This document shows, piece after piece, positions 1 through 49,498 of a stretch of 64,000 nt of DNA; within the stretch, counting starts at the first letter, position 1; every line of letters starts with the position of its first letter. Source of the DNA: Patagioenas fasciata. Taxonomy: Eukaryota; Chordata; Aves; Columbiformes; Columbidae. The DNA is taken from positions 111,378,605 to 111,442,604 of the forward strand of contig NC_092521.1 in the NCBI RefSeq assembly GCF_037038585.1, read 5' to 3'. The position numbers were made by a program, and so were the translations under genes. Under the pieces are notes generated by a model. It searched no databases, was not told the origin of the DNA, and saw only the letters and a list, made by a program, of their open reading frames with translations.

Positions 1-680
1 TTGAAGAGCTCTGCAGTGCTCCTCAAGAAGAAATTCCCTTTGTCTTGCCACTGCTACCCAGCTGAAAAGGATTTCCATCCATGAGCTGAGGTTTGAAGGT
101 GGCCCTGGCAGCAGATTGTCTTACAGTGGAGAACCTCCAGCAGCCTCACGCAAGCTCTTCCTCCCTCAGCCCCTGCCCTGTGATGCCACCAGCTCCTCAA
201 GTGCTTCCTCCGGGATGTGTTGGGGCTGCCCCCGGGCCAGCTCTGGCAGTGGACACGGGACCCGGCTGCTCCTTTTGATCCTGCCCAGGGCATTGTGAGC
301 TCTGCGTTGCCGGGTGCTGGCATTGTGACGTGGGGGTGACAGAGCCCCACGTGTGCAGCCCCGCCCGCCCCCAATCCGCCCAGCACCCTATGGAGGAAGC
401 CTTTGGGGTGCTGGCCCCAGATCAGTCCCTGAGCTGAAGAGGCCCAGGAGGCTGTCCCTGCCCTTGGTGTGCATTCGCTGGGCAGAGCTGCTGGGTGTCC
501 CTGAGGCCTCCTCTGCCGCTCGGCTCCCCAGAACAAACCTCCTGCTGTTTCTCTTCTCTCAGGCAGAAACCAGCCCTGCAGCCTCGAGGCCACCCTAGTA
601 TAGCCATCTCCTCTCTGCCCCACATAAAATGCCCACTGGGTCCCACAGCAAGGAAGACCAGGGACTCAATCCAGCTGGAC
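1..680 (+). repeat. Unit head, no gene seen
   Basis: GC-rich non-coding sequence, identical in L2 (9978-10657). Parts also appear at 19800-20180 and, inverted, at 27616-27835 and 57440-57660. Its first 100 bases are a diverged duplicate of 9681-9780 in the unit tail (same order of 'gagctctgcagtgctcct', 'cttgccactgctacccagctgaaaagg'). Open frames of 60-189 codons occur on both strands, but none has a recognisable domain, so I treat them as chance frames in GC-rich DNA. Confidence 0.6.
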
Positions 681-717
681 ACAAACCCTTTCCTGAGGCA
701 TAAAGAGAGTGATTTTG

Positions 718-1060
718 AGAGCTGCAGAGAGCAGCAGCAGGAATAGAGGCCAAGCTTTCCCTGGTTCGTAAGAGGGAGAACCTTGAGAATCAGGCGCAGG
801 ACTGACCATGCCCAAAAGAAGAAGAAGAAGTAGAAGATGATGATGACGGGTGTGGTACCGTGGGATGTTTTCCAGAGCTACGTGACACGTAGCGACAACG
901 AGCGGACTTTTTGCCTTCCACAGCTTGTTTTGCTGCTGTGCTTCTTGGGCAGGGATGCACGAGAAGCGCTTTGGTCCCTGCCAGGCGCTTGTGTTGCCCG
1001 CAGGGAGAGGTGCCGAGTGGCAGCTGCGGATGTTGCAGCCGGGCTGGAGCCCTTCCAAGC
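718..1060 (+). repeat. Module P (twice per full unit)
   Basis: A block of about 350 bases starts 'agctgcagagagcagcagcagg' in short form and ends near the 'ctgccactcgg' landmark (reverse sense). It occurs at 718-1060 and 6598-6900 in L1, 10695-11037 and 16742-17040 in L2. Inverted copies lie near 31115-31420, 39410-39730, 47733-48053, 56052-56372 and 60780-61090. The two copies inside one unit are clearly diverged, while the same copy in different units is nearly identical. That means an older duplication inside the unit preceded the recent amplification. No protein family is recognisable. Confidence 0.7.
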
Positions 1061-1385
1061 AGGGGCTGTTTTGGTGGAGGGAGGTTTTTGGTTTTGGTAG
1101 CTTGGTTGAGGTTGTTGAGGTGGTTGGAGGTGGTTTGTTTGAGGCAGGTTCTTCTTTGAGGGTGGTTGTGGGAGGCTGGGTTGTTGAAGGCTGGTGGGTT
1201 TAGGTAGCTTGATGTAGGTGATACTTGGTTGAAGTTGTTTTCCCTTGGTTGTTTTAGGTGGGGTATGTGAAGTTGTTTTCATTGAGGTTGTTTCCAGTAT
1301 TTTGTTTGAGGTTGGTGTAGGTGGTTTGGTTGAGGTTGTTGAGATGGTTTGAGGTTGGGTGGCTTAGGTTGGTTCTGTTATAAAG
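1060..1385 (+). repeat. Degenerate G+T-rich array
   Basis: Irregular runs of GGTTG, GGTTTAGG and TTGAGGTTG with almost no C and few A on the plus strand. The L2 copy is 11037-11362. It ends where the ERV leader begins. Confidence 0.75.
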
Positions 1386-1400
1386 CTTCAGTTGCCATGG

Positions 1401-1411
1401 GGACTCGAACC
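1401..1411 (-). promoter_or_regulatory. tRNA-like B box in ERV leader
   Basis: The minus strand reads GGTTCGAGTCC, a perfect RNA polymerase III B-box. It is preceded by CAGACTCT and GCAAGTGGG, which loosely resemble anticodon-arm and A-box parts of a tRNA-Lys. The acceptor and T stems do not pair properly, so this is a tRNA-derived or tRNA-like fragment, not a tRNA gene. The L2 copy is at 11378-11388. Confidence 0.4.
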
Positions 1412-1836
1412 CATGACTGGAGAGTCTGTTTACCCTTCTCCCACTTGCATGCAGTCATTAGCGGGTCCATCCTGGCTCCAGTGACCGGGACGCAACAGAA
1501 GGCTCACTCAGGGTTACTCGATCTACCCCCAAGATCGCTAGCGGCAGACCCCCTTCTGGTGGAGTCAAGTCAGTAGCCCCCTTAGGTAGGTGCCCATTTA
1601 CAGCAATATGGGGAATCTGGCCATGCGGAGGCTTCCCTCGCCAGTTGCTGGCCCCCATGTTACAGGCCCACGTTACAGTAAAACAAAAGCATACCTTATC
1701 CGCTTAATTCAAAAAGTCGTTGTCTGCCCCCGCGGTGACCAGCCGGAGTGGAACGGAGCCCCTGTGAAATAAAAGGTGCGGGACACGTCTGGGAGGTCCG
1801 TTTCTCTCAGGCGGTCCGCACAGCCGGGCAGAGCTT

Positions 1837-1854
1837 GTCCCTTCGTGGTCGCCA
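1837..1854 (-). other. Retroviral primer-binding site, tRNA-Arg(UCG) type
   Basis: The 18 bases read on the plus strand as the 3' end of a tRNA-Arg(UCG), from the T-arm to CCA. On the minus strand they begin TGGCGACC, as a PBS should, four bases after the LTR terminal CA. The tRNA assignment rests on my recollection of the vertebrate tRNA-Arg(UCG) 3' half. The L2 copy is at 11814-11831. Confidence 0.7.
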
Positions 1855-2507
1855 AAATTGATATGTGGAAACAACTTTACAGCCTATAAAGTCATAAAAC
1901 TTTACAACGTGCAAGCCTATAAAGCGGGTACGTTTATCTGATATCAGGCGCAAGGGGGATCGTTCCACCATTCATGCGCACCTTCTAACACTATGAGGTG
2001 TGTTTAAATACAGCAAGGTGTTAGGTATTCATAATGACCCCAGGAACGCCTATACTTATTCATAACCTTTCCCCGCTTCTTATTAAAATGAGTCCCAGGT
2101 CATAATTTCCAAAGCCTCCTCCTAGACAGCTCCCTGTTGCGCCTGCGCGGTGCCATCTGGTGGTCTTGAGGAGGGGTCTTTGGATGAAGGCTCCTTCAGC
2201 TTCGTCACAGTGAACTTTTTACCTTTGGCTCATTATGTTGAATTGACTGGGACCCAAGCGGCCAAGTCAATTGAAACCAGGCTGGCGCCCCCTTTTGCTC
2301 TAAGTCTTTGTTACCTCGTCTCCTCAAGTTTACAGCTGGGTGCAGTAAAACTTCTTATCTTGGCATTCGAGGGGGTTCTGTTTTTCTTAGCATGAGTCTA
2401 CATAAAGCTCTAAACTAAGCACTTATTGTGTGCCTAAGCCTTAAAGTGGTAGTTCATTAGTAGGCACCCATTATATGTTTAGTTAACCCTTAAAATGGTA
2501 GTTCCCT

Positions 2508-2676
2508 CTATCATGTCCCCTCCCCCCCCATCCCCTGTCTCTCACCCCTTCTCCCCCCCTCTTCCCCCCACCCCCTTCCCCTCTCCCCGCTCTGTCCCCC
2601 CTCCCCGTCCTATCCCTCTCTCTTCACTTCCCCTCCCTCCTTCTCCCTCTCTCCCCCCTCCCTCCTCTTTTCCCTA
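2508..2676 (+). repeat. C+T (polypyrimidine) tract
   Basis: About 170 bases of CCCT/CCCCCT/TCTCC with almost no purines, copied at 12485-12653 in L2. In the M units the equivalent is a shorter G+A tract with a 10-base G run (35232-35340, 43558-43663, 51880-51981). Confidence 0.9.
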
Positions 2677-2735
2677 AAAAAGACTTTCAAGGACACAAAA
2701 CACAATGGATACAAAGTGTTCCTTTTTATTTTATT
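2677..2735 (+). repeat. Tail module: CCCTAAAAA / GGACACAAAAC / T-rich
   Basis: After each pyrimidine tract comes 'ccctaaaaa', a gap, 'aaggacacaaaac(a/g)caatgg', 'atacaa(a)gtgtt' and then a T-rich run. It recurs at 6350-6430, 12654-12712, 16450-16565, and inverted near 31575-31650, 35185-35230, 39885-39950, 43510-43555, 48205-48270, 51835-51878, 56525-56590 and 61235-61385. The constant order looks like the 3' tail of one retroelement copied twice within the ancestral unit. I cannot name the element. Confidence 0.6.
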
Positions 2736-2839
2736 ATAGGTTCTTGAAGGTTGGTTAGTTGCTTGCTGTTGTTGTAGGTTGCTTTAGGTGAGTTGTTCTA
2801 TGCTGGTTTGGGTGTGCTGTTCTAGCTAAGTTTAGGACC

Positions 2840-3245
2840 ACCTCGTGGAGCAGCAGGCACCCAGCCCAAATGGCCCAAAGAAGCCATGGCAAGGGGCCGT
2901 GCTCAGCGCTGCAGAGGAAGGCAAAAAACCCCCGGAGACGCTTGCTGTCCCACCTGGGGGAAAAAAAAGCCTTCCTCCCCCCAGCTGCAGGGCACGAGAG
3001 GCCATCTTCCTGGTGCTTGAGCAGCAGGCAGGATCCGAGCCAAAAGGGCCCAGAGGAGCTCTGCAAAGTGGTCATGCTCAATGCTGCAGAGGAAGGCAAA
3101 AAACCCCCGGGGACCAGTGCCAATCTGCCCCGGGGGAAAAAATTCCTTCCTGACCCCAGTGCTGGCGATCGGCTGTTCCCTGAGCATGTGAGCCAGACCT
3201 GGCTCCTTGTCCCACAGGCTGCTCACGCCTCCCAGGACCTGCCCA
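2840..3245 (+). repeat. Module Q, with internal tandem duplication
   Basis: About 400 bases made of two diverged halves of about 173 bases, each opening with 'gcagaggaaggcaaaaaacc' (2911 and 3084). Other copies: 8985-9375, 12817-13222, 19129-19520, and inverted 28520-28920, 34680-35085, 43003-43408, 51321-51726, 58315-58715. A fragment of about 90 bases lies beside the CR1 at 38925-39015, 47248-47338 and 55567-55657. Open frames run through it in several frames on both strands because stops are rare, not because a protein is conserved. It resembles an interspersed sauropsid sequence I have seen before but cannot name with confidence. Confidence 0.65.
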
Positions 3246-3299
3246 AGCCCTATCTTATCCTATCCTCTCCTACCCTACCCTAGGCTATCCTACCTTGCG

Positions 3300-3625
3300 C
3301 TGGAGCCATCTCCTGGACTTGGGAGAGTGCCCAAAGGCCTCCGACCTAACGGACCTTGGCGGGGGGCAAGAACGCTTCGGAAAATCCTGCTTCCAGCTGT
3401 CCTGTCAAGAATTCATGACCAAACCTGGGCAGAGAAAACAAAATGCCAGAGATGAAACTTACTGCACGTAACAAGAGGACACAACAGAGATGACGGAGGA
3501 AAACAGCAAGAGGGGAAGGAGAGGAGGAGCAGAGAACACAGAAGGAAACGAGACCCTTGAATCTCACCCAATCAGAGGAGTAAGAGAAGGCTTCCAAAAG
3601 ACCAGGCTCTGAATACAAAGCATAC
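3300..3625 (-). other. CRTAP-like intron segment
   Basis: The minus strand immediately downstream of the splice donor at 3625/3626 ('gtatgctttgtattcagagcctggtctt') matches, with divergence, the sequence downstream of the CRTAP-like exon donor in the spacer (20514 down to about 20220). It contains no coding exon that I can see. Copies: 13277-13602 in L2, and inverted 34282-34610, 42604-42935 and 50922-51250. Confidence 0.65.
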
Positions 3626-3832
3626 CTCGTAAGGTTTTGTCTCCAAACTTTTCCTCTTTTGAAGGCAAGCTGCAGATCCCACGCTGTCCTTTGGTCTCCG
3701 ACGCGGCGTCCTTCGGTCCCCGGCGGTCTCTGGCGCTCTCCAGCGGGCTTCTGTGCACACACACACGCACATATCTGGTTTTTATTTTCTATATCTACAC
3801 ATTTCTATTAACTCTAGAGTCTGTATACACGT
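3626..3832 (-). other. Exon 2 of the PM(E/D)VDPP gene, chimeric, L1
   Basis: On the minus strand a strong acceptor (a pyrimidine run, then CTGTAG, at 3833-3855) opens this exon, and the donor GAG|gtatgc closes it at 3626. The exon's last codons in one frame read SLETKPYE, which matches the end of a CRTAP exon (DLETKSYE in the family); the donor position matches too. AATAAA occurs inside it (3781-3786), so the transcript could end here or splice onward. It lies after the stop codon of exon 1 and would be 3' UTR. Confidence 0.5.
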
Positions 3833-4086
3833 CTACAGGGAGAAGGAGAAAAAGTCTGAATTATTTGTGCCATGTGCAAACCTTTTCCCTTGAAGGCAAG
3901 CTCCAGCTCCAGCGCTGCCCTTGGGTGTCCTGGCCGTCTGTGGGGGCTCCTGAGGACTCCTCCCGGTGCTCTGGGGCTGCCGACCAGAAGATGGCAGCGA
4001 CTCTCCTCGCCTCTTCCCCAGGCCCCAGGGCAGAGGAGATGCCCCGGCATGAGGGCCGGGGCTGCGGGCTGGGAAGCCGGGCTCAC
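3833..4086 (-). other. Intron of the PM(E/D)VDPP gene, L1
   Basis: About 254 bases with a GTGAGC donor at the upper end and a TTTTTCTCCTTCTCCCTGTAG-type acceptor at the lower end, the expected short GC-rich intron. Equivalent introns: 13821-14074 (L2), 33814-34067 (M1), 42136-42389 (M2), 50454-50707 (M3). Confidence 0.55.
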
Positions 4087-4158
4087 CTGCGGCTCCAGAG
4101 CGGCTGCTGCTCCGGCCCGGCCCATCCCGTCCCGTCCCGTCCCATGCCCCGGAGGCGG

Positions 4159-4476
4159 CTAGTGGCGGCTGCGGGGGCGGCGCCGCTTGTGCCCAGGCGC
4201 CTGCTTGGGGGCTCTGGGAGAGCCCCCGGCCGTCCTGCGGCGCTTCGGGCACCACGGCGCTGGGGGCAGCCCGCCCACGCTGCTCTTGTGCCCCAGCAGC
4301 CCTGCCTGAGGCGGGTCCACGTCCATCGGCTCCGCCTCCTCCCGAGGCGGGTCGATGTCCATGGGCTGCTCCTCCTCCTCCCGGGGTGGGTCAACCTCCA
4401 TCGGCTCCTCCTCTCGCCTGGGGGCGGTGCTGCTGCTCCCGGCAGGCTGCCGCCGTTTCTTGGGCGGCGGAGCCAT
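4159..4476 (-). CDS. Unrecognised basic/Pro-rich protein with PM(E/D)VDPP repeats, L1
   Basis: 105 codons. I chose the start at 4476 because CCCATGG is a good Kozak context and the protein then begins MAPPPKKRRQ; an upstream in-frame ATG would add 49 residues. Residues 4-8 (PPKKRR), 75-79 (PKRRR) and the C-terminal HKRRRPRSRH are basic clusters like nuclear localisation signals. Residues about 22-56 hold three acidic repeats, PMEVDPP, PMDIDPP and PMDVDPP, each preceded by REE/EEE. The repeats keep the peptide while codons vary (GTT/ATC/GTG, CCA/CCG), which supports this frame over the other long GC-rich frames. A donor CAG|gtgagc at 4087/4086 and exon 2 follow. It lies head to head with LSM5 exon 1, ATG to ATG about 560 bases. 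Function unknown; a nuclear location is inference. Five copies in the window. Confidence 0.6.
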   Translation of the reverse strand: MAPPPKKRRQPAGSSSTAPRREEEPMEVDPPREEEEQPMDIDPPREEAEPMDVDPPQAGLLGHKSSVGGLPPAPWCPKRRRTAGGSPRAPKQAPGHKRRRPRSRH

Positions 4477-4700
4477 GGGCCGGGGGGTCCGTGAGCCTCC
4501 TCTTCTTTCTTCTGCTCGCTGCGGCCTCTTCTCTCCGAGCGCTGGCGCGGCTGGCACGGCTCTGCTCCAACTGCCACAACAGAGGCTCGCGGCGTCCCCA
4601 GCGAACGCTGCGGTGGCCGGCATGGCGGCCCACAGGGCCACGAGGGCCCCGTCGCGGGGCCATTTTGCTCTGCAGTGCTGTCAATGCTTATACTTGGTTT

Positions 4701-4726
4701 GCCTCGCCTCGCCTCGCCTCGCCTCA
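4701..4726 (+). repeat. (GCCTC)n short tandem repeat in divergent promoter
   Basis: Five GCCTC units between the two divergent genes. Copy number differs between units: 14689-14714 in L2, and inverted 33180-33204 (M1), 41486-41526 (M2, longest), 49809-49844 (M3). Confidence 0.9.
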
Positions 4727-4929
4727 GGTGGAACCAACTCATTTGCCTTTTGTCTAAAGGAAAGACCGACAGCCGCACATCTTTTGACAGTATCTTTGAC
4801 CAGCACGACAAACCTGGCACTTGTATTGCACAATTATCCTGTGCTAAGGGATTCTGCTGTTTCTTTAGTGCTGTACGATGAAGAATGCAAAAGGTGTTTG
4901 AAGAGACAGTGCTCGTTCCCGCGTTTACC

Positions 4930-5036
4930 GGCACACGGGGCGGGGCCGAGGAGCGACGGCTCTGCCATCCGCTCGTCAGGGCTGCTGGCTCGGTCTTTGC
5001 GGGAGGCGGTAGCGATTGGTCGGCTCTGTGTCCAGC
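4930..5036 (+). promoter_or_regulatory. LSM5: LSM5 promoter / divergent CpG-rich promoter, L1
   Basis: GC box GGGGCGGGGCC at 4937-4947 and an inverted CCAAT box (ATTGG, 5015-5019) lie 90 and 20 bases before the LSM5 ATG. There is no TATA box, as usual for a housekeeping CpG promoter. The same elements are kept in L2 (14918-15024) and, inverted, in M1 (32869-32975), M2 (41176-41282) and M3 (49499-49605). The PM(E/D)VDPP gene is transcribed away on the other strand, so this interval may drive both. Confidence 0.65.
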
Positions 5037-5085
5037 ATGGCGGCCAAGGCGAGCAGCAGCCCCTCTCAGCTGCTGCTGCCGCTCG
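5037..5085 (+). pseudogene. LSM5: LSM5 first coding exon, L1 (5' gene fragment)
   Basis: Sixteen codons plus one base, MAAKASSSPSQLLLPL, then G|gtaagc. It aligns with the N-terminus of LSM5 (MAANATTNPSQLLPL in mammals), the U6 snRNA/mRNA-decay LSm ring subunit, and the donor falls at the expected place. The start is in context AGCATGG. Only intron 1 follows; it is cut after about 750 bases by an ERVL LTR piece at about 5838, and no further LSM5 exon follows within the left arm. So this copy can start transcription but cannot by itself encode LSM5. I call it a fragment, not a dead exon: promoter, start codon and donor are all intact. Confidence 0.8.
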
Positions 5086-5837
5086 GTAAGCGGCGCCGCG
5101 ACGCTTCCGCGCTCTCCCGGTGCCCGGGCGGGGCTGCGCTGGGGCCCGGCCTGTGCCCGGCGGGCGGGCGGGGAGGCCGAGGCCGCTTGCGGGCACGCGT
5201 GGGTGGCGCGGTCGGCGCCGCCGCTTGGCGGGCAGCTGGAGCGGGGGGAGCGGGTGTGCCCGCCGGGTCCGGCGGTGTCGGCCGGTGCGGGAAAATCCCG
5301 TCGAAGATGTTACAGGCTTGTGAGTATTATTTCTGCTTGTTGTTGCTGTTTAAGTTTGTGTTTCCTGAGGGAAAACTTGCTGTAAGGTCTGTAAGCAAAA
5401 CGTGCTTGTTTTTTTGGAATGAATGTTTGCCAGCTGAGTAGTTTCTGCCTTGGACTGAATCCTTGGGGTGATCTGTTCGGGGCAGCCCTTTCATAGAGTA
5501 GCAGTTGCGTGACTGATCCTTGTCATCGGGTTCCTAACTGGTAGCCTTTATTTGGCGTGGGTTGTTGTGTTGAACTTCTCCGTAGTTCGTTTGCTTTTCC
5601 ATTTCCTGAAGGTCTAGGCAAAGATTAAACAAATGAGTGGACTTAAAGAGAAGTATTTGTTATTTGGCCATGCCATGTTGCTATTTGAAACCTGTTTTGA
5701 TTCTTGGTGATATTCAAGAAGTTGCCGCGACTCAGAGGGCAAATCTTGATGTGCTGAGCAGAAGAGTGCAATGGATCTTTTTGGTTGCCAGGTAGCTTTC
5801 CTGACCCATGTGGCCAGTTGATCGAGATTCCACTGCA
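5086..5837 (+). other. LSM5 intron 1 segment, L1
   Basis: Intronic sequence shared by all units and also present beside the spacer (27006-27540, inverted), where it adjoins the intron leading to the LSM5 3' exons. The shared sequence stops at 'ccactgca' in the units, and the LTR piece begins there. Copies: 15074-15842 (L2), and inverted 32060-32819, 40367-41126 and 48690-49449; truncated at 57009-57412. Confidence 0.75.
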
Positions 5838-6060
5838 CGCCTGAGAGAGTGAGAAAGATCCCCTCCCTCCTTAAAGAATGACCGTGATGCTAATGGGATG
5901 AAATACGCTTGTTGATCAGCCTGGATGTCAGTCAAGCTCTGTCCCATCTCTGCCCCCCTTCCTCGACAGGTCCCATCTGTGGGCAGAGCGGTCAGAATGT
6001 CCCTGGCTCTCAGACCAGAGCAATTACAAACATTAGTTCTGTGCTGGGGTGTTAGCTCTT
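5838..6060 (-). mobile_element. Truncated ERVL-type LTR piece
   Basis: On the minus strand this matches the LTR at the right edge of the array (61742-61925: 'gaggaaggggggcagagatggg', 'ttaaggagggaggggatct'). It is cut at 'ctctctcaggcg', exactly where LSM5 intron 1 begins. Other unit copies: 15843-16065 (minus), and plus-strand 31840-32059, 40147-40366, 48470-48689 and 56789-57008. Confidence 0.65.
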
Positions 6061-6207
6061 GTTCTCAACCTAATTCCAAAGAATGACTGTGCGAGCTGTG
6101 AAAAAGAAAGGTTTCTAACCGCGTGAAGAAAATCAGTTCGCTTTCGGCGAAAAGAGCACAATTTCTTTCAGGTATGGAGCCCTCAGGGCTCTGTCAGGGC
6201 TTTCTTT

Positions 6208-6345
6208 TCTCCTCTGCCTTCCCTTCCCTTCCTTTCCCTTCCCTTCCCTTCCCTTCCCTTCCCTTCCCTTCCCTTCCCTTCCCTTCCCTTCCCTTCCCTT
6301 CCCTTCCCTTCCCTTCCCTTCCACCTTCCCTCTCCCTTCCTTCAC
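6208..6345 (+). repeat. (TTCCC)n pentanucleotide array
   Basis: About 20 uninterrupted CCCTT/TTCCC units in L1. The L2 copy (16215-16435) is longer with several CCCCCTT interruptions. S2 carries the longest uninterrupted version, as GGGAA (61400-61570). M1-M3 and S1 keep only 3-6 units (for example 31655-31685, 39955-39990). Confidence 0.95.
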
Positions 6346-7014
6346 TCTTCCCTAAAAACCACTTCCCAGGACACAAAACGCAATGGATACAAGTGTTTCT
6401 ATTTGATTTTGTTTTATTTTCTTTTTTAATTTACTTCCTTTGATGTTATTTCATGTCATTTCTGTTTCTCACTCTGTTTCAGAGCCAGTGCTCACAATCC
6501 TTAACACAAGCCCACGTGTAGCCAGGAGCAGGCTGATGCATTCTTCAGTTTAGCTTGAACAAACAGCCCTTGCAGGCTGGCAAAGGCAAGTCCCAGAGCT
6601 GCAGAGAGCAGCAGCAGGAATAGAGGCCAAGCTTTCCCTGGTTGTTGAAGAGGGAGAACCTTGAGAATGAGGCGCGGGCCTGACCATGCACAAAAGAAGA
6701 GGTATGTGGTACTGTGGGATCTTTTCCGAAGCATCACATGTAGCGATGACAAGCAGACGTTTTGCCTTCCACACCTTGTTTTGCTGCTGTGCTTCTCGGG
6801 CAGGGATGCACGAGAAGCGCTCTGGTCCCTGCCAGGCGCTGGTGTTGCCCGCAGGGAGAGCTGCCGAGTGGCAGCTGCGAATCCTTCCTGTTCCTGACAG
6901 GACACCAGTGGCTGCTCCAAAGCACTGGGTCCCCATGCAACATCTCTGCATCCTGTTGCCTACATCTGCCTTCTTTGTCTGTAACTTGTTTGGGTTTTGC
7001 CTGTTTCTTTCTAC

Positions 7015-8105
7015 CTTGTTTGTTTTTTTGTTGTGGTGGTGGTGGTGGTGTTGTTTCTCTTGTTGCTGTTGTTCTGGTTTTGTTGGGGCTTTTGAAGTTT
7101 GTTTCGTTTGGTTGGTTTAGGTCAGTTTCTATGAGTTGGTTTTGGTAGGCTTTTTGAGAGTGGTTGTTCGAAGGTGGTTGTTTGACGCTGTATTACGTTG
7201 TTGGTAGGTTGTGTGTTCGTAGGTCACTGAAGGCGGGTTGTTTTAGGTTAAGGTTTGTTAAGTTTGGTTTAGGTTGGCGGTCTTAGCTGCTTGTTTCAGG
7301 TTTGATGGTTTAGCTTGGTTTGGGTTGGTTAGTTTAGGTGGGCAGGTTCAGGTTGTTTGATGTGATTTTCTTAGCGCTGCTCTGTGTGGTTTAGCTTAGG
7401 AGCTTTCTTTTTCTTGGTTTTGCTGGGTTCTTTGGTTGGTGCTGTTTTCTGAGGATTCTTTAGCACTGGTTGTGTTAGTTTGGTTTAGGTTTCTGGTTTT
7501 AGTAGCTTGGTTCAGTTTGTTGCGGTCGTTTGAGGTTGGTTTGAGGCAGGTTCTTTGAGGGTGGTTGTGAGAGGCTGGTTGTTGAAGGCTGGTGGGTTGA
7601 GGTTGCTTGATGCAGGTGATTTTTGGTTGAAGTTGTCTTCCGTCGGTTGTTGTAGGTGGCGTATCTGAAGCCGTTTTCATGGAGGCTGTTTTCTTTAGTT
7701 TGGTTGAGGTTTGTTTAGATGATTTTAAGTTGGGGGTGGGTTGGTTATTTGAGGTTGTTTCTTTTCAGTAAGCAGTTTAGGTGGGTTGGTGGGTGTCTGT
7801 GTTTTTAGGTAGGTTGGTTTAGGCAGGTTTGGTTTACATTGTTTAGGTCGCTTGAAGGGTTTCTGTTAAGGTTGGTTCAGGTTGTTTGGTTTAGGTTGGT
7901 TTAGTTATTTCCTGGTAGGTTGTTTAGGGCAGTGTTATGCACGGTGCATGTTTTGAAGATGGGTTCCTTCAGGCTGGGGTGGCTTAGATTGGTTGTTGAG
8001 GGTGCTTTAGGTGGTTTGGTTAGATGTACATTGTGTTTTGTTGGTTTTAGGTTGTGTCTGGATGCTTTGGATGTGACTGCAATCTCGCTGGGACATGTGT
8101 CCCCC
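7015..8105 (+). repeat. Long degenerate G+T-rich array, block 1
   Basis: About 1.1 kb built from irregular GGTTTAGGTT, GGTTGGTTT and TTGTTGTGGTGG words with C below a few percent on the plus strand. It begins with a (GGT)n/(TTG)n stretch at about 7028-7060. The complementary strand has a stop-free frame of 94 codons rich in T, N, Q and P (7396-7680), which I regard as low-complexity. The L2 copy is 17165-18250. Confidence 0.85.
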
Positions 8106-8384
8106 CACTAATCACCAGGCTCGATTGGGCTGTTTCTGCTGTCTCGGCAGATGTCCCCTTCCTCCTTCCCTGCTCCACGTGTTTCCCTGCCTTGCTCAAA
8201 GAGGATGACGTTCCCCGCTAGAGGCGAACCATTGCTAGGTCAAGGGTATACGGTAGCTGCGCTGTGCTTGAGAACCTCCCTCCAAACAAGCTCAGGGTCC
8301 GTTAGGAGGAGAACCTGGGGTAGTCAAGCTTCCAAGACTGCAGGCACATCCAAGTGAGACACTGCCTGGGGTAGGGTGGCTGGT
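8106..8384 (+). other. Complex-sequence island inside the G+T array
   Basis: About 280 bases of normal composition interrupt the array. It contains an acceptor-like sequence directly before an ATG ('ctgtctcggcagATG', ATG at 8151) and a 68-codon frame (8151-8357, MSPSSFPAP... to ...KTAGTSK). The frame is open in all four copies (18295-18501, and minus 29513-29719 and 59308-59514) with about four amino-acid changes. No family is recognised; it may be a remnant of a mobile element or exon, or chance. Confidence 0.3.
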
Positions 8385-8965
8385 GGTTGGGTTTTTGTTG
8401 TTGAGGTTTTTTAGGGTGTTTTAGCTTTGTTGTTGAAGTTGAGTTGATCTAGATTGGTTTTTAGCTTGGTCATTGTAGGCTGGTTTCAGTGGTTCTATTT
8501 AGCTTTGGGTTGTTTGCTTTAGGTCATTTTGGTCAGGTTATGTCATTGGGTTTCGTATTTTTGAGGCTGGTTTAGATCGGTCGCTTTAGGTAGTTTTATC
8601 CTTTATTAGATTGGTTTTAAGTTGTTTGAGATTGTTTAATGGTTATTTTAGGTTAAGATTGGTTGGTTTCAGTTTGTTTAGCTTGTTTGGTTCTAGGTTG
8701 CTTAAGGTTGGTTGAGAAATGCCGGTTTATGTAGTTTTAGATTGTTTTAGGTAGGATTTTTTTAGATCATTTGGTTTAGGTAGGTTTGTTTTAGGGTGTT
8801 TAGGTTGGTTTATTTTGTTTGGTTTAGGTAATTTGTTGTAGATTGTTTAAGGTTCTGTTTAGGTTGTTGGTGGCTGATTGAAGTTTTTTAAGGCAGACTG
8901 GTTTAGCTTCTTTAAGGTTGGTTTAGGTGAGCTGTTCTATGCTGGTTTGGGTAGGCTGTTCTAGC
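8385..8965 (+). repeat. Long degenerate G+T-rich array, block 2
   Basis: About 580 bases of GGTTTAGG/GGTTGGTTT-type words with interspersed TTTTAG, continuing block 1 beyond the island. The L2 copy is 18530-19110. Confidence 0.85.
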
Positions 8966-9384
8966 TAAGTTTAGGGCCAGCTCGTGGAGCAGCAGGCACC
9001 CAGCCCAAATGGCGCAAAGAAGCCGTGGCAAGGGGCCGTGCTCAGCGCTGCAGAGGAAGGCAAAAAACCCCCGGAGACGCTTGCTGTCCCACCTGGGGGA
9101 AAAAAAAAGCCTTCCTCCCCCCAGCTGCAGGGCACAAGAGGCCATCTCCCTGGTGCTTGAGCAGCAGGCAGGATCCGAGCCAAAAGGGCCCAGAGGAGCT
9201 CTGCAAAGTGGTCATGCTCAATGCTGCAGAGGAAGGCAAAAAACCCCCGGGGACCAGTGCCAATCTGCCCCGGGGGAAAAAATTCCTTCCTGACCCCAGT
9301 GCTGGCGATCGGCTGTTCCCTGAGCATGTGAGCCAGACCTGGCTCCTTGTCCCACAGGCTGCTCACGCCTGCCAGGACCTGCCC

Positions 9385-9478
9385 AAGCCCTATCCTATCC
9401 TATCCTATCCCATCCTATCCTATCCCATCCTATCCTATCCCATCCTATCCTATCCCATCCCATCCCATCCTATCCTCC
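9385..9478 (+). repeat. (TATCC)n array with CATCC variants
   Basis: Units TATCC and CATCC alternate in a higher-order pattern (TATCC TATCC CATCC). Other copies: 3250-3290 (very short), 13227-13267, 19535-19658 (about 24 pure units), and inverted 28335-28495, 34613-34668, 42938-42990, 51254-51308 and 58153-58290. Confidence 0.95.
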
Positions 9479-9479
9479 C

Positions 9480-9977
9480 TTGAGCTGGAGTCATCTCCCG
9501 GACTCCCGAGAGTGCTCAAATGCCCCTGACCTGATGGACCTTGGCGGGGACTAGAATGCTTCCTGTGCCTGGTGGGACACCAGTGGTTGTCCCAAAGCAC
9601 TGCAATCCCTTGCAACCCCTTTACATCCTAGTTCTTACGGCTCCTGAGCCTGGCTCCACAGGGGATGAAGATGGTGAGCTCTGCAGTGCTCCTCCCGAAG
9701 GAATTCCCTTGGTCTTGCCACTGCTATCCAGCTGAAAAGGATTTCCAGCCATCAGATAAGCTTGGCAGGTGGCCCTGGCAGTCCGTGTGCCATTCCTTCC
9801 CAATGCAGCAAGTGACTTGTGCTGCCCAACGCAGCAAGTGGCGTGCTGCTACGCTGTCATTTATGGTGACGCTGTCTGCTCGGGAAGAAGTCCTGAATGG
9901 TTTTGTGCTGTTTACCGTCTCTTTCCCTGGACTTGATAGCTCTTTTCCTGCTTTGGCTTTCATCCTTGATATCGTCC
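9480..9977 (+). repeat. Unit tail with internal near-duplicate
   Basis: About 500 bases without a recognisable gene. 9681-9780 is a diverged duplicate of the beginning of the next unit (9981-10085), about 300 bases apart. In L2 the two are fused (19745-19865), as expected from recombination between them. Inverted copies: 27836-28260 and 57660-58085. Confidence 0.65.
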
Positions 9978-11361
9978 TTGAAGAGCTCTGCAGTGCTCCT
10001 CAAGAAGAAATTCCCTTTGTCTTGCCACTGCTACCCAGCTGAAAAGGATTTCCATCCATGAGCTGAGGTTTGAAGGTGGCCCTGGCAGCAGATTGTCTTA
10101 CAGTGGAGAACCTCCAGCAGCCTCACGCAAGCTCTTCCTCCCTCAGCCCCTGCCCTGTGATGCCACCAGCTCCTCAAGTGCTTCCTCCGGGATGTGTTGG
10201 GGCTGCCCCCGGGCCAGCTCTGGCAGTGGACACGGGACCCGGCTGCTCCTTTTGATCCTGCCCAGGGCATTGTGAGCTCTGCGTTGCCGGGTGCTGGCAT
10301 TGTGACGTGGGGGTGACAGAGCCCCACGTGTGCAGCCCCGCCCGCCCCCAATCCGCCCAGCACCCTATGGAGGAAGCCTTTGGGGTGCTGGCCCCAGATC
10401 AGTCCCTGAGCTGAAGAGGCCCAGGAGGCTGTCCCTGCCCTTGGTGTGCATTCGCTGGGCAGAGCTGCTGGGTGTCCCTGAGGCCTCCTCTGCCGCTCGG
10501 CTCCCCAGAACAAACCTCCTGCTGTTTCTCTTCTCTCAGGCAGAAACCAGCCCTGCAGCCTCGAGGCCACCCTAGTATAGCCATCTCCTCTCTGCCCCAC
10601 ATAAAATGCCCACTGGGTCCCACAGCAAGGAAGACCAGGGACTCAATCCAGCTGGACACAAACCCTTTCCTGAGGCATAAAGAGAGTGATTTTGAGAGCT
10701 GCAGAGAGCAGCAGCAGGAATAGAGGCCAAGCTTTCCCTGGTTCGTAAGAGGGAGAACCTTGAGAATCAGGCGCAGGACTGACCATGCCCAAAAGAAGAA
10801 GAAGAAGTAGAAGATGATGATGACGGGTGTGGTACCGTGGGATGTTTTCCAGAGCTACGTGACACGTAGCGACAACGAGCGGACTTTTTGCCTTCCACAG
10901 CTTGTTTTGCTGCTGTGCTTCTTGGGCAGGGATGCACGAGAAGCGCTTTGGTCCCTGCCAGGCGCTTGTGTTGCCCGCAGGGAGAGGTGCCGAGTGGCAG
11001 CTGCGGATGTTGCAGCCAGGCTGGAGCCCTTCCAAGCAGGGGCTGTTTTGGTGGAGGGAGGTTTTTGGTTTTGGTAGCTTGGTTGAGGTTGTTGAGGTGG
11101 TTGGAGGTGGTTTGTTTGAGGCAGGTTCTTCTTTGAGGGTGGTTGTGGGAGGCTGGGTTGTTGAAGGCTGGTGGGTTTAGGTAGCTTGATGTAGGTGATA
11201 CTTGGTTGAAGTTGTTTTCCCTTGGTTGTTTTAGGTGGGGTATGTGAAGTTGTTTTCATTGAGGTTGTTTCCAGTATTTTGTTTGAGGTTGGTGTAGGTG
11301 GTTTGGTTGAGGTTGTTGAGATGGTTTGAGGTTGGGTGGCTTAGGTTGGTTCTGTTATAAA

Positions 11362-12467
11362 GCTTCAGTTGCCATGGGGACTCGAACCCATGACTGGAGA
11401 GTCTGTTTACCCTTCTCCCACTTGCATGCAGTCATTAGCGGGTCCATCCTGGCTCCAGTGACCGGGACGCAACAGAAGGCTCACTCAGGGTTACTCGATC
11501 TACCCCCAAGATCGCTAGCGGCAGACCCCCTTCTGGTGGAGTCAAGTCAGTAGCCCCCTTAGGTAGGTGCCCATTTACAGCAATATGGGGAATCTGGCCA
11601 TGCGGAGGCTTCCCTCGCCAGTTGCTGGCCCCCATGTTACAGGCCCACGTTACAGTAAAACAAAAGCATACCTTATCCGCTTAATTCAAAAAGTCGTTGT
11701 CTGCCCCCGCGGTGACCAGCCGGAGTGGAACGGAGCCCCTGTGAAATAAAAGGTGCGGGACACGTCTGGGAGGTCCGTTTCTCTCAGGCGGTCCGCACAG
11801 CCGGGCAGAGCTTGTCCCTTCGTGGTCGCCAAAATTGATATGTGGAAACAACTTTACAGCCTATAAAGTCATAAAACTTTACAACGTGCAAGCCTATAAA
11901 GCGGGTACGTTTATCTGATATCGGGCGCAAGGGGGATCGTTCCACCATTCATGCGCACCTTCTAACACTATGAGGTGTGTTTAAATACAGCAAGGTGTTA
12001 GGTATTCATAATGACCCCAGGAACGCCTATACTTATTCATAACCTTTCCCCGCTTCTTATTAAAATGAGTCCCAGGTCATAATTTCCAAAGCCTCCTCCT
12101 AGACAGCTCCCTGTTGCGCCTGCGCGGTGCCATCTGGTGGTCTTGAGGAGGGGTCTTTGGATGAAGGCTCCTTCAGCTTCGTCACAGTGAACTTTTTACC
12201 TTTGGCTCATTATGTTGAATTGACTGGGACCCAAGCGGCCAAGTCAATTGAAACCAGGCTGGCGCCCCCTTTTGCTCTAAGTCTTTGTTACCTCGTCTCC
12301 TCAAGTTTACAGCTGGGTGCAGTAAAACTTCTTATCTTGGCATTCGAGGGGGTTCTGTTTTTCTTAGCATGAGTCTACATAAAGCTCTAAACTAAGCACT
12401 TATTGTGTGCCTAAGCCTTAAAGTGGTAGTTCATTAGTAGGCACCCATTATATGTTTAGTTAACCCT
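11362..12467 (-). mobile_element. ERV fragment in L2: LTR, PBS and leader
   Basis: Second copy of the L1 ERV fragment, at offset 9977 with only about one visible base change (for example near 11923). The PBS is 11814-11831 and the LTR lies about 11836-12467. No coding region is attached. Confidence 0.7.
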
Positions 12468-13602
12468 TAAAATGGTAGTTCCCTCTATCATGTCCCCTCC
12501 CCCCCCATCCCCTGTCTCTCACCCCTTCTCCCCCCCTCTTCCCCCCACCCCCTTCCCCTCTCCCCGCTCTGTCCCCCCTCCCCGTCCTATCCCTCTCTCT
12601 TCACTTCCCCTCCCTCCTTCTCCCTCTCTCCCCCCTCCCTCCTCTTTTCCCTAAAAAAGACTTTCAAGGACACAAAACACAATGGATACAAAGTGTTCCT
12701 TTTTATTTTATTATAGGTTCTTGAAGGTTGGTTAGTTGCTTGCTGTTGTTGTAGGTTGCTTTAGGTGAGTTGTTCTATGCTGGTTTGGGTGTGCTGTTCT
12801 AGCTAAGTTTAGGACCACCTCGTGGAGCAGCAGGCACCCAGCCCAAATGGCCCAAAGAAGCCATGGCAAGGGGCCGTGCTCAGCGCTGCAGAGGAAGGCA
12901 AAAAACCCCCGGAGACCCTTGCTGTCCCACCTGGGGGAAAAAAAAGCCTTCCTCCCCCCAGCTGCAGGGCACGAGAGGCCATCTTCCTGGTGCTTGAGCA
13001 GCAGGCAGGATCCGAGCCAAAAGGGCCCAGAGGAGCTCTGCAAAGTGGTCATGCTCAATGCTGCAGAGGAAGGCAAAAAACCCCCGGGGACCAGTGCCAA
13101 TCTGCCCCGGGGGAAAAAATTCCTTCCTGACCCCAGTGCTGGCGATCGGCTGTTCCCTGAGCATGTGAGCCAGACCTGGCTCCTTGTCCCACAGGCTGCT
13201 CACGCCTCCCAGGACCTGCCCAAGCCCTATCTTATCCTATCCTCTCCTACCCTACCCTAGGCTATCCTACCTTGCGCTGGAGCCATCTCCTGGACTTGGG
13301 AGAGTGCCCAAAGGCCTCCGACCTAACGGACCTTGGCGGGGGGCAAGAACGCTTCGGAAAATCCTGCTTCCAGCTGTCCTGTCAAGAATTCATGACCAAA
13401 CCTGGGCAGAGAAAACAAAATGCCAGAGATGAAACTTATTGTACGTAACAAGAGGACACAACAGAGATGACGGAGGAAAACAGCAAGAGGGGAAGGAGAG
13501 GAGGAGCAGAGAACACAGAAGTAAACGAGACCCTTGAATCTCACCCAATCAGAGGAGTAAGAGAAGGGTTCCAAAAGACCAGGCTCTGAATACAAAGCAT
13601 AC

Positions 13603-13820
13603 CTCGTAAGGTTTTGTCTCCAAACTTTTCCTCTTTTGAAGGCAAGCTGCAGATCCCACGCTGTCCTTTGGTCTCCGACGATGTTCTCCAGCGGCGTCCT
13701 TCGGTCCCCGGCGGTCTCTGGCGCTCTCCAGCGGGCTTCTGTGCACACACACACGCACATATCTGGTTTTTATTTTCTATATCTACACATTTCTATTAAC
13801 TCTAGAGTCTGTATACACGT
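13603..13820 (-). other. Exon 2 of the PM(E/D)VDPP gene, chimeric, L2
   Basis: As in L1, with the same acceptor and GAG|gtatgc donor. It has an 11-base insertion near 13680 ('atgttctccag') relative to L1, so it is 218 bases long; M1-M3 share the insertion region. AATAAA is kept on the minus strand. Confidence 0.48.
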
Positions 13821-14146
13821 CTACAGGGAGAAGGAGAAAAAGTCTGAATTATTTGTGCCATGTGCAAACCTTTTCCCTTGAAGGCAAGCTCCAGCTCCAG
13901 CGCTGCCCTTGGGTGTCCTGGCCGTCTGTGGGGGCTCCTGAGGACTCCTCCCGGTGCTCTGGGGCTGCCGACCAGAAGATGGCAGCGACTCTCCTCGCCT
14001 CTTCCCCAGGCCCCAGGGCAGAGGAGATGCCCCGGCATGAGGGCCGGGGCTGCGGGCTGGGAAGCCGGGCTCACCTGCGGCTCCAGAGCGGCTGCTGCTC
14101 CGGCCCGGCCCGGCCCATCCCATCCCGTCCCATGCCCCGGAGGCGG

Positions 14147-14464
14147 CTAGTGGCGGCTGCGGGGGCGGCGCCGCTTGTGCCCAGGCGCCTGCTTGGGGGC
14201 TCTGGGAGAGCCCCCGGCCGTCCTGCGGCGCTTCGGGCACCACGGCGCTGGGGGCAGCCCGCCCACGCTGCTCTTCTGCCCCAGCAGCCCTGCCTGAGGC
14301 GGGTCCACGTCCATCGGCTCCGCCTCCTCCCGAGGCGGGTCGATGTCCATGGGCTGCTCCTCCTCCTCCCGGGGTGGGTCAACCTCCATCGGCTCCTCCT
14401 CTCGCCTGGGGGCGGTGCTGCTGCTCCCGGCAGGCTGCCGCCGTTTCTTGGGCGGCGGAGCCAT
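14147..14464 (-). CDS. PM(E/D)VDPP-repeat protein, L2
   Basis: 105 codons with the same start context and repeats as L1. It differs from L1 by a single residue, Q for H in the LLG(H/Q)KSS segment between the repeats and the second basic cluster. Donor CAG|gtgagc follows at 14075/14074. The divergent LSM5 exon 1 copy starts at 15025. Confidence 0.6.
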   Translation of the reverse strand: MAPPPKKRRQPAGSSSTAPRREEEPMEVDPPREEEEQPMDIDPPREEAEPMDVDPPQAGLLGQKSSVGGLPPAPWCPKRRRTAGGSPRAPKQAPGHKRRRPRSRH

Positions 14465-15024
14465 GGGCCGGGGGGTCCGTGAGCCTCCTCTTCTTTCTTC
14501 TGCTCGCTGCGGCCTCTTCTCTCCGAGCGCTGGCGCGGCTGCCACGGCTGTGCTCCAACTGCCACAACAGAGGCTCGCGGCGTCCCCAGCGAACGCTGCG
14601 GTGGCCGGCATGGCGGCCCACAGGGCCACGAGGGCCCCGTTGCGGGGCCATTTTGCTCTGCAGTGCTGTCAATGCTTGCACTTGGTTTGCCTCGCCTCGC
14701 CTCGCCTCGCCTCGGCTGGAACCAACTCATTTGCCTTTTGTCTTAAGGAAAGACCGACAGCCGCACATCTTTTGACAGTATCTTTGACCAGCACGACAAA
14801 CCTGGCACTTGTATTGCACAATTATCCTGTGCTAAGGGATTCTGGTATTTCTTTAGTGCTGTACGATGAAGAATGCAAAAGGTGTTTGAAGAGACAGTGC
14901 TCGTTCCCGCGTTTAGCGGCACACGGGGCGGGGCCGAGGAGCGACGGCTCTGCCATCTGCTCGTCGGGGCTGCTGGCTCGGTCTTTGCGGGAGGCGGTAG
15001 CGATTGGTCGGCTCTGTGTCCAGC

Positions 15025-15073
15025 ATGGCGGCCAAGGCGAGCAGCAGCCCCTCTCAGCTGCTGCTGCCGCTCG
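15025..15073 (+). pseudogene. LSM5: LSM5 first coding exon, L2 (5' gene fragment)
   Basis: Identical to the L1 exon (MAAKASSSPSQLLLPL, then G|gtaagc), with the GC box and ATTGG upstream. Intron 1 differs by an expanded GGCCGA run (about 15160-15190) and a few bases. Intron 1 again ends in the ERVL LTR piece, so no downstream LSM5 exon is in cis on this strand. Confidence 0.8.
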
Positions 15074-16496
15074 GTAAGCGGCGCCGCGACGCTTCCGCGC
15101 TCTCCCGGTGCCCGGGCGGGGCTGCGCTGGGGCCCGGCCTGTGCCCGGCGGGCGGGCGGGCGGGGAGGCCGAGGCCGAGGCCGAGGCCGCTTGCGGGCAC
15201 GCGTGGGTGGCGCGGTCGGCGCCGCCGCTTGGCGGGCAGCTGGAGCGGGGGGAGCGGGTGTGTCCGCCGGGTCAGGCGGTGTCGGCCGGTGCGGGAAAAT
15301 CCCGTCGAAGATGTTACAGGCTTGTGAGTATTATTTCTGCTTGTTGTTGCTGTTTAAGTTTGTGTTTCCTGAGGGAAAACTTGCTGTAAGGTCTGTAAGC
15401 AAAACGTGCTTGTTTTTTTGGAATGAATGTTTGCCAGCTGAGTAGTTTCTGCCTTGGACTGAATCCTTGGGGGTGATCTGTTCGGGGCAGCCCTGTCACA
15501 GAGTAGCAGTTGCGTGACTGATCCTTGTCATCGGGTTCCTAACTGGTAGCCTTTATTTGGCGTGGGTTGTTGTGTTGAACTTCTCCGTAGTTCGTTTGCT
15601 TTTCCATTTCCTGAAGGTCTAGGCAAAGATTAAACAAATGAGTGGACTTAAAGAGAAGTATTTGTTATTTGGTCATGCCATGTTGCTGTTTGAAACCTGT
15701 TTTGATTCTTGGTGATATTCAAGAAGTTGCCGCGACTCAGAGGGCAAATCTTGATGTGCTGAGCAGAAGAGTGCAATGGATCTTTTTGGTTGCCAGGTAG
15801 CTTTCCTGACCCATGTGGCCAGTTGATCGAGATTCCACTGCACGCCTGAGAGAGTGAGAAAGATCCCCTCCCTCCTTAAAGAATGACCGTGATGCTAATG
15901 GGATGAAATACGCTTGTTGATCAGCCTGGATGTCAGTCAAGCTCTGTCCCATCTCTGCCCCCCTTCCTCGACAGGTCCCATCTGTGGGCAGAGCGGTCAG
16001 AATGTCCCTGGCTCTCAGACCAGAGCAATTACAAACATTAGTTCTGTGCTGGGGTGTTAGCTCTTGTTCTCAACCTAATTCCAAAGAATGACTGTGCGAG
16101 CTGTGAAAAAGAAAGGTTTCTAACCGCGTGAAGAAAATCAGTTCGCTTTCGGCGAAAAGAGCACAATTTCTTTCAGGTATGGAGCCCTCAGGGCTCTGTC
16201 AGGGCTTTCTTTTCTCCTCTGCCTTCCCTTCCCTTCCCTTCCCCCTTCCCTTCCCCCTTCCCTTCCCTTCCCTTCCCTTCCCTTCCCTTCCCTTCCCTTC
16301 CCTTCCCTTCCCTTCCCTTCCCTTCCCTTCCCTTCCCTTGCCTTCCCTTCCCCCTTCCCTTCCCTTCCCTTCCCCCTTCCCTTCCCCCTTCCCTTCCCTT
16401 CCCCCTTCCCTTCCCCCTTCCCTTCCTTCACTCTTCCCTTACTCTTCCCTAAAAACCACTTCCCAGGACACAAAACGCAATGGATACAAGTGTTTC

Positions 16497-32819: not shown

Positions 32820-32868
32820 CGAGCGGCAGCAGCAGCTGAGAGGGGCTGCAGCTCGCCTTGGCCGCCAT
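32820..32868 (-). pseudogene. LSM5: LSM5 first coding exon, M1
   Basis: MAAKASCSPSQLLLPL, with one substitution (S to C at residue 7) relative to the other copies, and an intact donor. It is the exon 1 copy nearest to the spacer LSM5 exons on the same strand. A transcript would have to cross S1, with its LTR, arrays and fragment of intron 1, to reach 26889. The GC box and CCAAT box are present upstream. Confidence 0.8.
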
Positions 32869-33428
32869 GCTGGACACAGAGCCGACCAATCGCTACCGCC
32901 TCCCGCAAAGACCGAGCCAGCAGCCCCGACGAGCGGATGGCAGAGCCGTCGCTCCTCGGCCCCGCCCCGTGTGCCGCTAAACGCGGGAACGAGCACTGTC
33001 TCTTCAAACACCTTTTGCATTCTTCATCCTCCAGCACTAAAGAAATACCAGAATCCCTTAGCACAGGATAATTGTGCAATACAAGTGCCAGGTTCGTCGT
33101 GCTGGTCAAAGATACTGTCAAAAGATGTGCGGCTGTCGGTCTTTCCTTAAGACAAAAGGCAAATGAGTTGGTTCCAGCCGAGGCGAGGCGAGGCGAGGCG
33201 AGGCAAACCAAGTGCAAGCATTGACAGCACTGCAGAGCAAAATGGCCCCGCAACGGGGCCCTCGTGGCCCTGTGGGCCGCCATGCCGGCCACCGCAGCGT
33301 TCGCTGGGGACGCCGCGAGCCTCTGTTGTGGCAGTTGGAGCACAGCCGTGCCAGCCGCGCCAGCGCTCGGAGAGAAGAGGCCGCAGCGAGCAGAAGAAAG
33401 AAGAGGAGGCTCACGGACCCCCCGGCCC

Positions 33429-33746: not shown

Positions 33747-34067
33747 CCGCCTCCGGGGCATGGGACGGGATGGGATGGGCCGGGCCGGAGCAGCAGCCGC
33801 TCTGGAGCCGCAGGTGAGCCCGGCTTCCCAGCCCGCAGCCCCGGCCCTCATGCCGGGGCATCTCCTCTGCCCTGGGGCCTGGGGAAGAGGCGAGGAGAGT
33901 CGCTGCCATCTTCTGGTCGGCAGCCCCAGAGCACCGGGAGGAGTCCTCAGGAGCCCCCACAGACGGCCAGGACACCCAAGGGCAGCGCTGGAGCAGGAGC
34001 TTGCCTTCCAGGGAAAAGGTTTGCACATGGCACAAATAATTCAGACTTTTTCTCCTTCTCCCTGTAG

Positions 34068-49449: not shown

Positions 49450-49498
49450 CGAGCGGCAGCAGCAGCTGAGAGGGGCTGCTGCTCGCCTTCGCCGCCAT
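49450..49498 (-). pseudogene. LSM5: LSM5 first coding exon, M3
   Basis: Same as M2: MAAKASSSPSQLLLPL, intact donor, promoter at 49499-49605. Confidence 0.8.

What the first reader, a model, noticed from the sequence alone, without database searches (positions are those of the whole stretch)
4159..4476. Multi-copy, apparently undescribed small nuclear-protein gene with PM(E/D)(V/I)DPP repeats
The same 105-codon frame is open in all five full units (4159-4476, 14147-14464, 33429-33746, 41751-42068, 50069-50386), with only two amino-acid positions seen to vary. The three repeats keep their peptide while synonymous codons differ, which points to past selection on this frame. It has a Kozak start, a splice donor, a good acceptor and AATAAA in a second exon. 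Three basic clusters surround an acidic/Pro core. Not a family I can name.
Basis: partly seen in the sequence, partly recalled or inferred. Interest (0 to 1): 0.85.

Follow-up and report, generated by a model that had tools for sequence, protein, structure and literature searches.

The report
Bird-wide undescribed small charged-protein gene family
The window holds five near-identical copies of a small gene that belongs to a large family of short, highly charged, possibly nuclear proteins found in many birds, for which I found no name or function, so it is a real but apparently unstudied gene family whose role has to be found by experiment.

Summary
A 105-codon frame is open in all five units and varies at two codons; units 1 and 2 read on the minus strand. 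The open frame alone proves nothing: random sequence of like composition gives one as long in 951 of 2000 trials. Homology decides. Three protein searches (capped lists) listed 153 relatives. The 21 with an organism name are all birds, 11 species; the other 132 carry none. With the repeats cut away, 97 of 117 C-terminal tails, the window's included, form one single-linkage cluster above shuffled scores. So the gene belongs to a large, diversified bird family: usually two to five EPMEVDPP-type acidic/proline repeats (98 of 120) between often basic ends. No Pfam or solved-structure match was found for the window protein. Its structure model is of low confidence, compatible with disorder. Best reading: a nuclear, multivalent short-motif adaptor held on nucleic acid or chromatin by its tail, amplified for dosage. 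The family is shown; nuclear location and mechanism are inferred. Expression and dN/dS could not be tested, and the proposed spliced transcript would be NMD-prone.

The parts
4159..4476 (-). coding frame, unit 1 (105 aa + TAG)
   Evidence: translation; variant V12A
14147..14464 (-). coding frame, unit 2 (105 aa + TAG)
   Evidence: translation; variants V12A and H63Q
33429..33746 (+). coding frame, unit 3 (105 aa + TAG); residues 1-21 net +6, residues 22-56 with three acidic/Pro repeats net -14, residues 57-105 net +13
41751..42068 (+). coding frame, unit 4
50069..50386 (+). coding frame, unit 5; unit 4 and unit 5 are identical over the 2876 bases compared around the gene
33282..33428 (+). possible 49-aa in-frame N-terminal extension from an upstream ATG with the better start context (unit 3; frame also open in the other four)
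   Evidence: (P0002)
33814..34067 (+). proposed 254-nt intron in the 3' UTR (CAG/GTGAGC ... CCCTGTAG); junction 67 nt after the stop
   Evidence: sequence; signals in 5 of 5 copies; splicing itself not shown
34114..34119 (+). AATAAA poly(A) signal of the proposed second exon, followed by a GT-rich stretch
32300..34100 (.). CpG-island-like region over promoter and gene, unit 3 (CpG observed/expected 0.56-1.01 in 400-base windows)
5037..5085 (+). divergent exon-like start (ATGGCGGCCAAG...) followed by GTAAGC, 561 bases from the unit 1 start codon; may mark a two-way promoter
   Evidence: sequence; transcription not shown; the frame beyond the donor differs between copies (listing)
31118..57311 (.). 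direct tandem array of about 8.32-kb units (units 3-5), 99.4-99.6% alike
1..16360 (.). tandem pair of about 10-kb units (units 1-2), inverted relative to units 3-5

Best explanation
A protein-coding gene in five local copies, member of a large bird gene family. The product is a small, probably disordered, basic-acidic-basic protein. Proposed working: the basic N-terminus (PPPKKRR) carries it into the nucleus; the EPMEVDPP repeats are copies of one short binding motif and hold a partner protein multivalently; the arginine/lysine-rich tail anchors it on nucleic acid or chromatin; the arrayed, near-identical copies with CpG-rich promoters give dosage, perhaps in germ line or early embryo. Shown: the copies, the family, the charge pattern and the repeats. 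Inferred: coding activity of these copies, nuclear location, partner binding, anchoring, expression site.
For: 153 other listed relatives, of which all 21 with an organism name are birds. Tail similarity outside the repeats: five relatives score above the best of 200 shuffled tails; 97 of 117 tails form one single-linkage cluster above the best shuffled score. Repeat spacing is 10-12 residues in 145 of 166 neighbouring pairs, and in a 17-sequence alignment with 23% mean column identity most motif columns are among the few that are 90% or more identical, as expected of a kept binding motif. Two of three repeat pairs in the window show an excess of synonymous change. Charges +6/-14/+13 in the window; basic-acidic-basic in 50 of 91 members with two or more repeats and both flanks. 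Model pTM 0.18, mean pLDDT 67.9, compatible with disorder. Five listed bird records carry isoform numbers (X1, X2, X3, X5), which in NCBI annotation usually rests on RNA evidence (recalled).
Against: No transcript seen. Both changes among the five copies alter the protein. The third repeat pair shows no significant excess. The 3'UTR junction would make the spliced form NMD-prone. The N part is basic by the cut-off used in only 54 of 91 members, and all three charge features hold in only 50 of 91. The model is of low confidence and the tool returned no secondary-structure assignment, which may be a failure and not an absence. Many relatives are mechanical predictions from short contigs; some are fused to other sequence (P0140 carries part of a lectin domain; P0099 a stretch weakly like EFCAB6), so part of the set is pseudogene or mis-prediction.
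Confidence: 0.55

Rival explanations
1. These five copies are pseudogenes or passive passengers: the family is real elsewhere, but here the frame is open only because the copies are young and GC-rich, and the amplification carries no function.
For: Copies 98.3-100% alike; a random frame of this length is common here (951 of 2000); only amino-acid-changing differences (2 of 2); NMD-prone exon model; units 4 and 5 identical over 2876 bases, possibly an assembly duplicate.
Against: The coding stretch is less variable than its near flanks (2 of 318 against 29 of 1111 columns, p 0.029), though only marginally so against all flanks compared (59 of 2521, p 0.061), and gene conversion could do the same; the tail aligns over its length with intact relatives (P0003, P0008); splice and poly(A) signals kept in 5 of 5.
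Confidence: 0.3
2. The frame belongs to a transposable element or satellite: a repeat-borne ORF spread through bird genomes.
For: Many diverged copies; some records stand for many contigs (P0031: 141, P0072: 108); the units are rich in repeats.
Against: No Pfam transposon or virus domain in any member scanned; CpG-island context and poly(A) signal; several distinct conserved tail types, which looks like a gene family; contig counts may only reflect repeated sequencing of one species. Weak hint of a shared position: one crane member bears the label EFCAB6 (P0057) and one bamboo partridge member runs into a stretch whose only PDB matches are EFCAB6 (P0099, E 0.1-0.22).
Confidence: 0.1
3. Not a gene: an artefact of a GC-rich CpG island in which a long frame is expected.
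For: 951 of 2000 random sequences give such a frame; several other long frames overlap.
Against: Relatives at E down to 4.1e-29 in the first search apart from the window's own record, with similarity outside the repeats.
Confidence: 0.04

Closest known systems
Unnamed bird proteins (duck Anapl_17589 and Anapl_18080, both partial; Lagopus muta LOC125695660 and LOC125686119; Cygnus olor LOC121065891; Anser cygnoides LOC125179780; Tympanuchus pallidicinctus LOC128076015 and LOC128076263; Grus japonensis GRJ2 entries; Bubo scandiacus partial product)
   Same: EPMEVDPP-type repeats, mostly basic ends, 69-243 aa; the family this gene belongs to
   Different: Other tail types; the relatives with the CPKRRR tail nearest to the window's (P0003, P0008, P0009, P0004, P0005) come from sources without an organism name
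VCX/VCY (variable charge X/Y) family of primates
   Same: Small multi-copy few-exon genes; VCY copies in palindrome arms kept alike by gene conversion; VCY protein reported largely in germ-cell nuclei (PMC3055243 and PMC6790999, passages seen); short repeated acidic units (recalled)
   Different: No sequence relationship found; sex-linked in primates, here on a 170-Mb contig, which I take as too long for a bird W or Z (inference); expression unknown here
REST (label 're1-silencing transcription factor-like' on the bar-tailed godwit relative P0131)
   Same: Repeated acidic/Pro stretches of similar flavour (recalled)
   Different: P0131 has no Pfam match at E 0.01, hence no zinc fingers found; the label looks automatic
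HMGN nucleosome-binding proteins
   Same: Small, charged; an RSAR-like string (HMGN motif recalled) occurs in 7 relatives' tails
   Different: String absent from the window protein; no HMGN match among the Pfam results

Membership tests
Unnamed bird EPMEVDPP multigene family | two or more PM[ED][VI]DPP-type repeats | tested here: met
   three repeats in 5 of 5 copies; in the set of the first two searches 98 of 120 proteins, the window's own record included, have two to five by the pattern used, 21 have one and 1 has none
Unnamed bird EPMEVDPP multigene family | sequence similarity outside the repeats | tested here: met
   tail of the window protein against 153 repeat-masked relatives: P0003 89.0, P0008 67.0, P0009 43.9, P0004 33.1, P0005 32.7 bits; best of 200 shuffles 30.4. 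All other relatives fall below that directly, e.g. P0130 27.7, P0011 26.2, P0039 25.8. By single linkage 97 of 117 tails and 83 of 132 N-terminal pieces cluster with the window's
Unnamed bird EPMEVDPP multigene family | occurs in birds | tested here: met
   21 of 21 organism-named rows are birds; the other 132 of 153 rows carry no organism. Lineages of four of the 11 species were looked up. The window itself looks avian from a CR1-like stretch near 38060 (recalled motif)
VCX/VCY | homologous sequence | tested here: inconclusive
   no VCX/VCY row among the listed hits (120 of 143 and 120 of 140), which cover proteins of about 58-306 aa that share exact words with the query; no direct comparison was made
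VCX/VCY | multi-copy in palindromic or inverted arms | tested here: met
   units 1-2 inverted against units 3-5
VCX/VCY | expression only in male germ cells | not testable with these tools
   no expression data held
REST | C2H2 zinc fingers | tested here: not met
   no Pfam match in the window protein or in P0131
HMGN | RRSARLSA nucleosome-binding motif (recalled) | tested here: not met
   absent from the window protein (sequence); no Pfam match
Transposable element ORF | transposase, integrase, reverse transcriptase or capsid domain | tested here: not met
   0 Pfam families at E up to 1 for three window copies; isolated weak hits to unrelated families in 17 and 12 relatives; none of these domains in 10 and 5 more

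The most novel reading that the evidence does not exclude
A bird-wide gene family of many paralogues, all built on one repeated eight-residue motif between exchangeable basic ends, has been missed because annotation calls its members uncharacterized or mislabels them; the repeats bind a single conserved nuclear partner, and fast turnover of copies and tails reflects a germ-line conflict or a dosage race, an autosomal bird counterpart of the primate VCX/VCY type.
Probability: 0.2. Interest if true: 0.8.

Novelty: new variant of a known kind. Interest (0 to 1): 0.5.

Why it matters
If the family is expressed, bird genomes carry a large, diversified set of genes for small charged proteins that domain libraries do not see. 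The single repeated motif makes the question testable: one synthetic EPMEVDPP repeat peptide can be used to pull down its partner. It also gives what looks like an autosomal case of tandem and inverted amplification of a charged-protein gene, to set against the primate VCX/VCY palindromes.

Tried and rejected
Open frame as evidence: rejected, 951 of 2000 random sequences have one as long. dN/dS between the units: not usable, two non-synonymous and no synonymous differences. Known domains and structures: none for the window protein; in relatives only weak isolated hits, except P0140, a latrophilin-3 model with part of a lectin domain beyond the family part. NCBIfam is built for bacteria and archaea, so its silence says little. 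AlphaFold model: mean pLDDT 67.9, pTM 0.18, no secondary-structure assignment returned; no fold search was made. DNA of relatives for codon tests: scans of viral contigs and of bacterial and archaeal genome contigs found none, as could be expected for a bird gene. Further diverged copies in the window: none; the repeat motif occurs only in the five copies. Weaker rows, such as 36381-36854 (42.0 bits, E 1.1e-7), are at chance level, because shuffled versions of the protein reach 45.8 bits in the window. Link to the 7SK-like repeats: considered and dropped; all four copies lack GATC strings and a TATAA within 110 bases upstream, so they look like 7SK pseudogenes. HMGN-like RSAR string: 7 relatives, not the window, dropped. 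REST: label only. Literature: ten searches. Searches gave 0 papers; some searches gave listings (14, 1, 8 of 33, and 7) of which I saw titles and abstract starts, and none pointed to this family; only passages of PMC3055243 and PMC6790999 were read. Subscription papers are mostly not held. Rows left out before counts: one search used 91 of 154 (two or more repeats and both flanks); one search used 117 tails and 132 N-termini of 154. The homologue lists show 120 of 143 and 120 of 140 hits, down to E 0.04.

Full report
What is there. Two of the five lie on the minus strand. The protein is 105 aa, pI 9.99, with net charge +6, -14 and +13 in its three parts. Only two codons vary among the copies, both changing the amino acid. 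The repeat motif occurs 15 times in six frames of the window, three per copy and nowhere else. Self-comparison shows units 3 to 5 as an 8.32-kb direct tandem, 99.4-99.6% alike, and units 1 and 2 as a tandem of about 10 kb in the opposite orientation. Units 4 and 5 are identical over 2876 compared bases. The database row for the window's own protein stands on a contig of 170,067,140 bases, which points to a large autosome and not to W or Z (inference).

In sequence of this composition a frame of 105 codons or more is no surprise: 951 of 2000 first-order random sequences have one. The start context is mixed: -3 is C, +4 is G. An in-frame ATG 147 bases upstream has the better context and yields 154 aa, though the inner methionine is the one that lines up with the start of the duck relative. 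Donor, acceptor and AATAAA are kept in five of five copies, but the junction lies 67-72 nt after the stop, where the usual 50-55 nt rule (recalled) predicts nonsense-mediated decay. The repeat argument survives counting in part: two of three repeat pairs show an excess of synonymous change (p 0.014 and 0.018; third pair 0.18). Coding columns are less variable than near flanks (2 of 318 against 29 of 1111, p 0.029) but only marginally so against all flanks compared (59 of 2521, p 0.061). Gene conversion could also produce this.

What decides it. A search with the protein gave four relatives besides its own record, among them a duck predicted protein. A profile search gave 143 hits (120 listed, down to E 0.04) and a second, with longer members, 140 (120 listed). 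In all, 153 distinct relatives were listed. Of these, 21 carry an organism name, from 11 species: Anas, Anser, Cygnus, Aix, Lagopus, Tympanuchus, Bambusicola, Grus, Patagioenas, Bubo and Limosa. All are birds; Charadriiformes, Strigiformes, Columbiformes and Gruiformes were looked up, Anseriformes and Galliformes are recalled. The other 132 have no organism, so the family's limits are not known; no non-bird name appeared among the listed rows. To rule out that the repeats alone make the matches, the repeats were masked or cut off. The window's tail then matches P0003, P0008, P0009, P0004 and P0005 above the best of 200 shuffles; no other relative does so directly. Across the set, 97 of 117 tails and 83 of 132 N-terminal pieces fall in the window's single-linkage cluster above the best score of shuffled sequences. 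Single linkage is permissive: wider members connect only through intermediates such as P0008.

What the family looks like. The commonest core is EPMEVDPP; repeats sit 10-12 residues apart in 145 of 166 neighbouring pairs. Tails fall into several types, for example CPKRRR, WHHYTVPGLP, RGARIRPPP and GSRF. Basic ends around an acidic middle hold in 50 of 91 members with two or more repeats and both flanks. The precomputed Pfam column is empty in all listed rows but one, P0140, a latrophilin-3 model with part of a lectin domain; my own scans of members gave no convincing domain otherwise. No solved structure matches the window protein or the profile. The model of the window protein has mean pLDDT 67.9 and pTM 0.18; no secondary-structure assignment was returned. 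The label REST-like on P0131 is not borne out by domains. The label EFCAB6 on crane P0057 has no domain support either, but bamboo partridge P0099 runs beyond the family part into a stretch whose only four PDB matches are EFCAB6, at weak E of 0.1-0.22; this may mean that some members sit beside EFCAB6 in two bird orders.

How it most likely works. A probably disordered protein with repeated near-identical short motifs between basic ends is best read as a multivalent adaptor: basic start for nuclear entry, repeats for a partner, basic tail for nucleic acid or chromatin. This is inference from anatomy. Conservation of the core while the rest diverges is the main support. The closest system in working and in genome setting is primate VCX/VCY: multi-copy, VCY in palindrome arms homogenised by gene conversion, VCY protein largely in germ-cell nuclei, biological function unexplained (passages in PMC3055243 and PMC6790999). 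There is no sequence evidence of kinship, so it is not filed there.

Verdict. A real gene family, wide among birds as far as names allow, for which I found no supported name or function in the libraries and the papers searched. Whether these five copies are active is open.

Noticed in passing
window 8069-8387 (+), 18213-18531 (+), 29483-29801 (-), 59278-59596 (-): Four near-identical 7SK-like sequences (139.6-143.2 bits, gathering score 35) embedded in degenerate TTTAGG-like repeats; no GATC strings and no TATAA within 110 bases upstream, so probably an amplified 7SK pseudogene.
   Followed up: partly
window 36200-37100 (composition measured) and, by position, the copies near 44520-45420 and 52840-53740: A second CpG-island-like stretch (GC up to 0.81) in the 8.32-kb units, with long overlapping frames on both strands; not identified.
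   Followed up: no
window 35360-35960, copies near 43690-44060 and 52010-52370: Short broken retrovirus-like piece with a zinc-knuckle-like and a protease-start-like string, judged by eye.
   Followed up: no
window 38060-38730: CR1-like bird repeat in the 8.32-kb unit (recognised from memory).
   Followed up: no
window 5037-5085 and counterparts: Divergent exon-like start with a GTAAGC donor, 561 bases from the gene's start codon in unit 1; may be the other half of a two-way promoter.
   Followed up: partly
units around 41751 and 50069: Units 4 and 5 identical over 2876 bases around the gene; very recent duplication, conversion, or an assembly duplicate.
   Followed up: no
window 6217-6353, 16222-16450, 61400-61571; 19532-19659; 28333-28497, 58153-58287: Five-base CCTTC/GGAAG and CCTAT arrays and 15-base GGATGGGATAG-type arrays, of differing length between units.
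   Followed up: no
relatives P0057 (Grus japonensis) and P0099 (Bambusicola thoracicus): One is labelled EFCAB6, the other runs into an EFCAB6-like stretch (PDB matches E 0.1-0.22); perhaps a shared chromosomal neighbourhood of some family members.
   Followed up: partly
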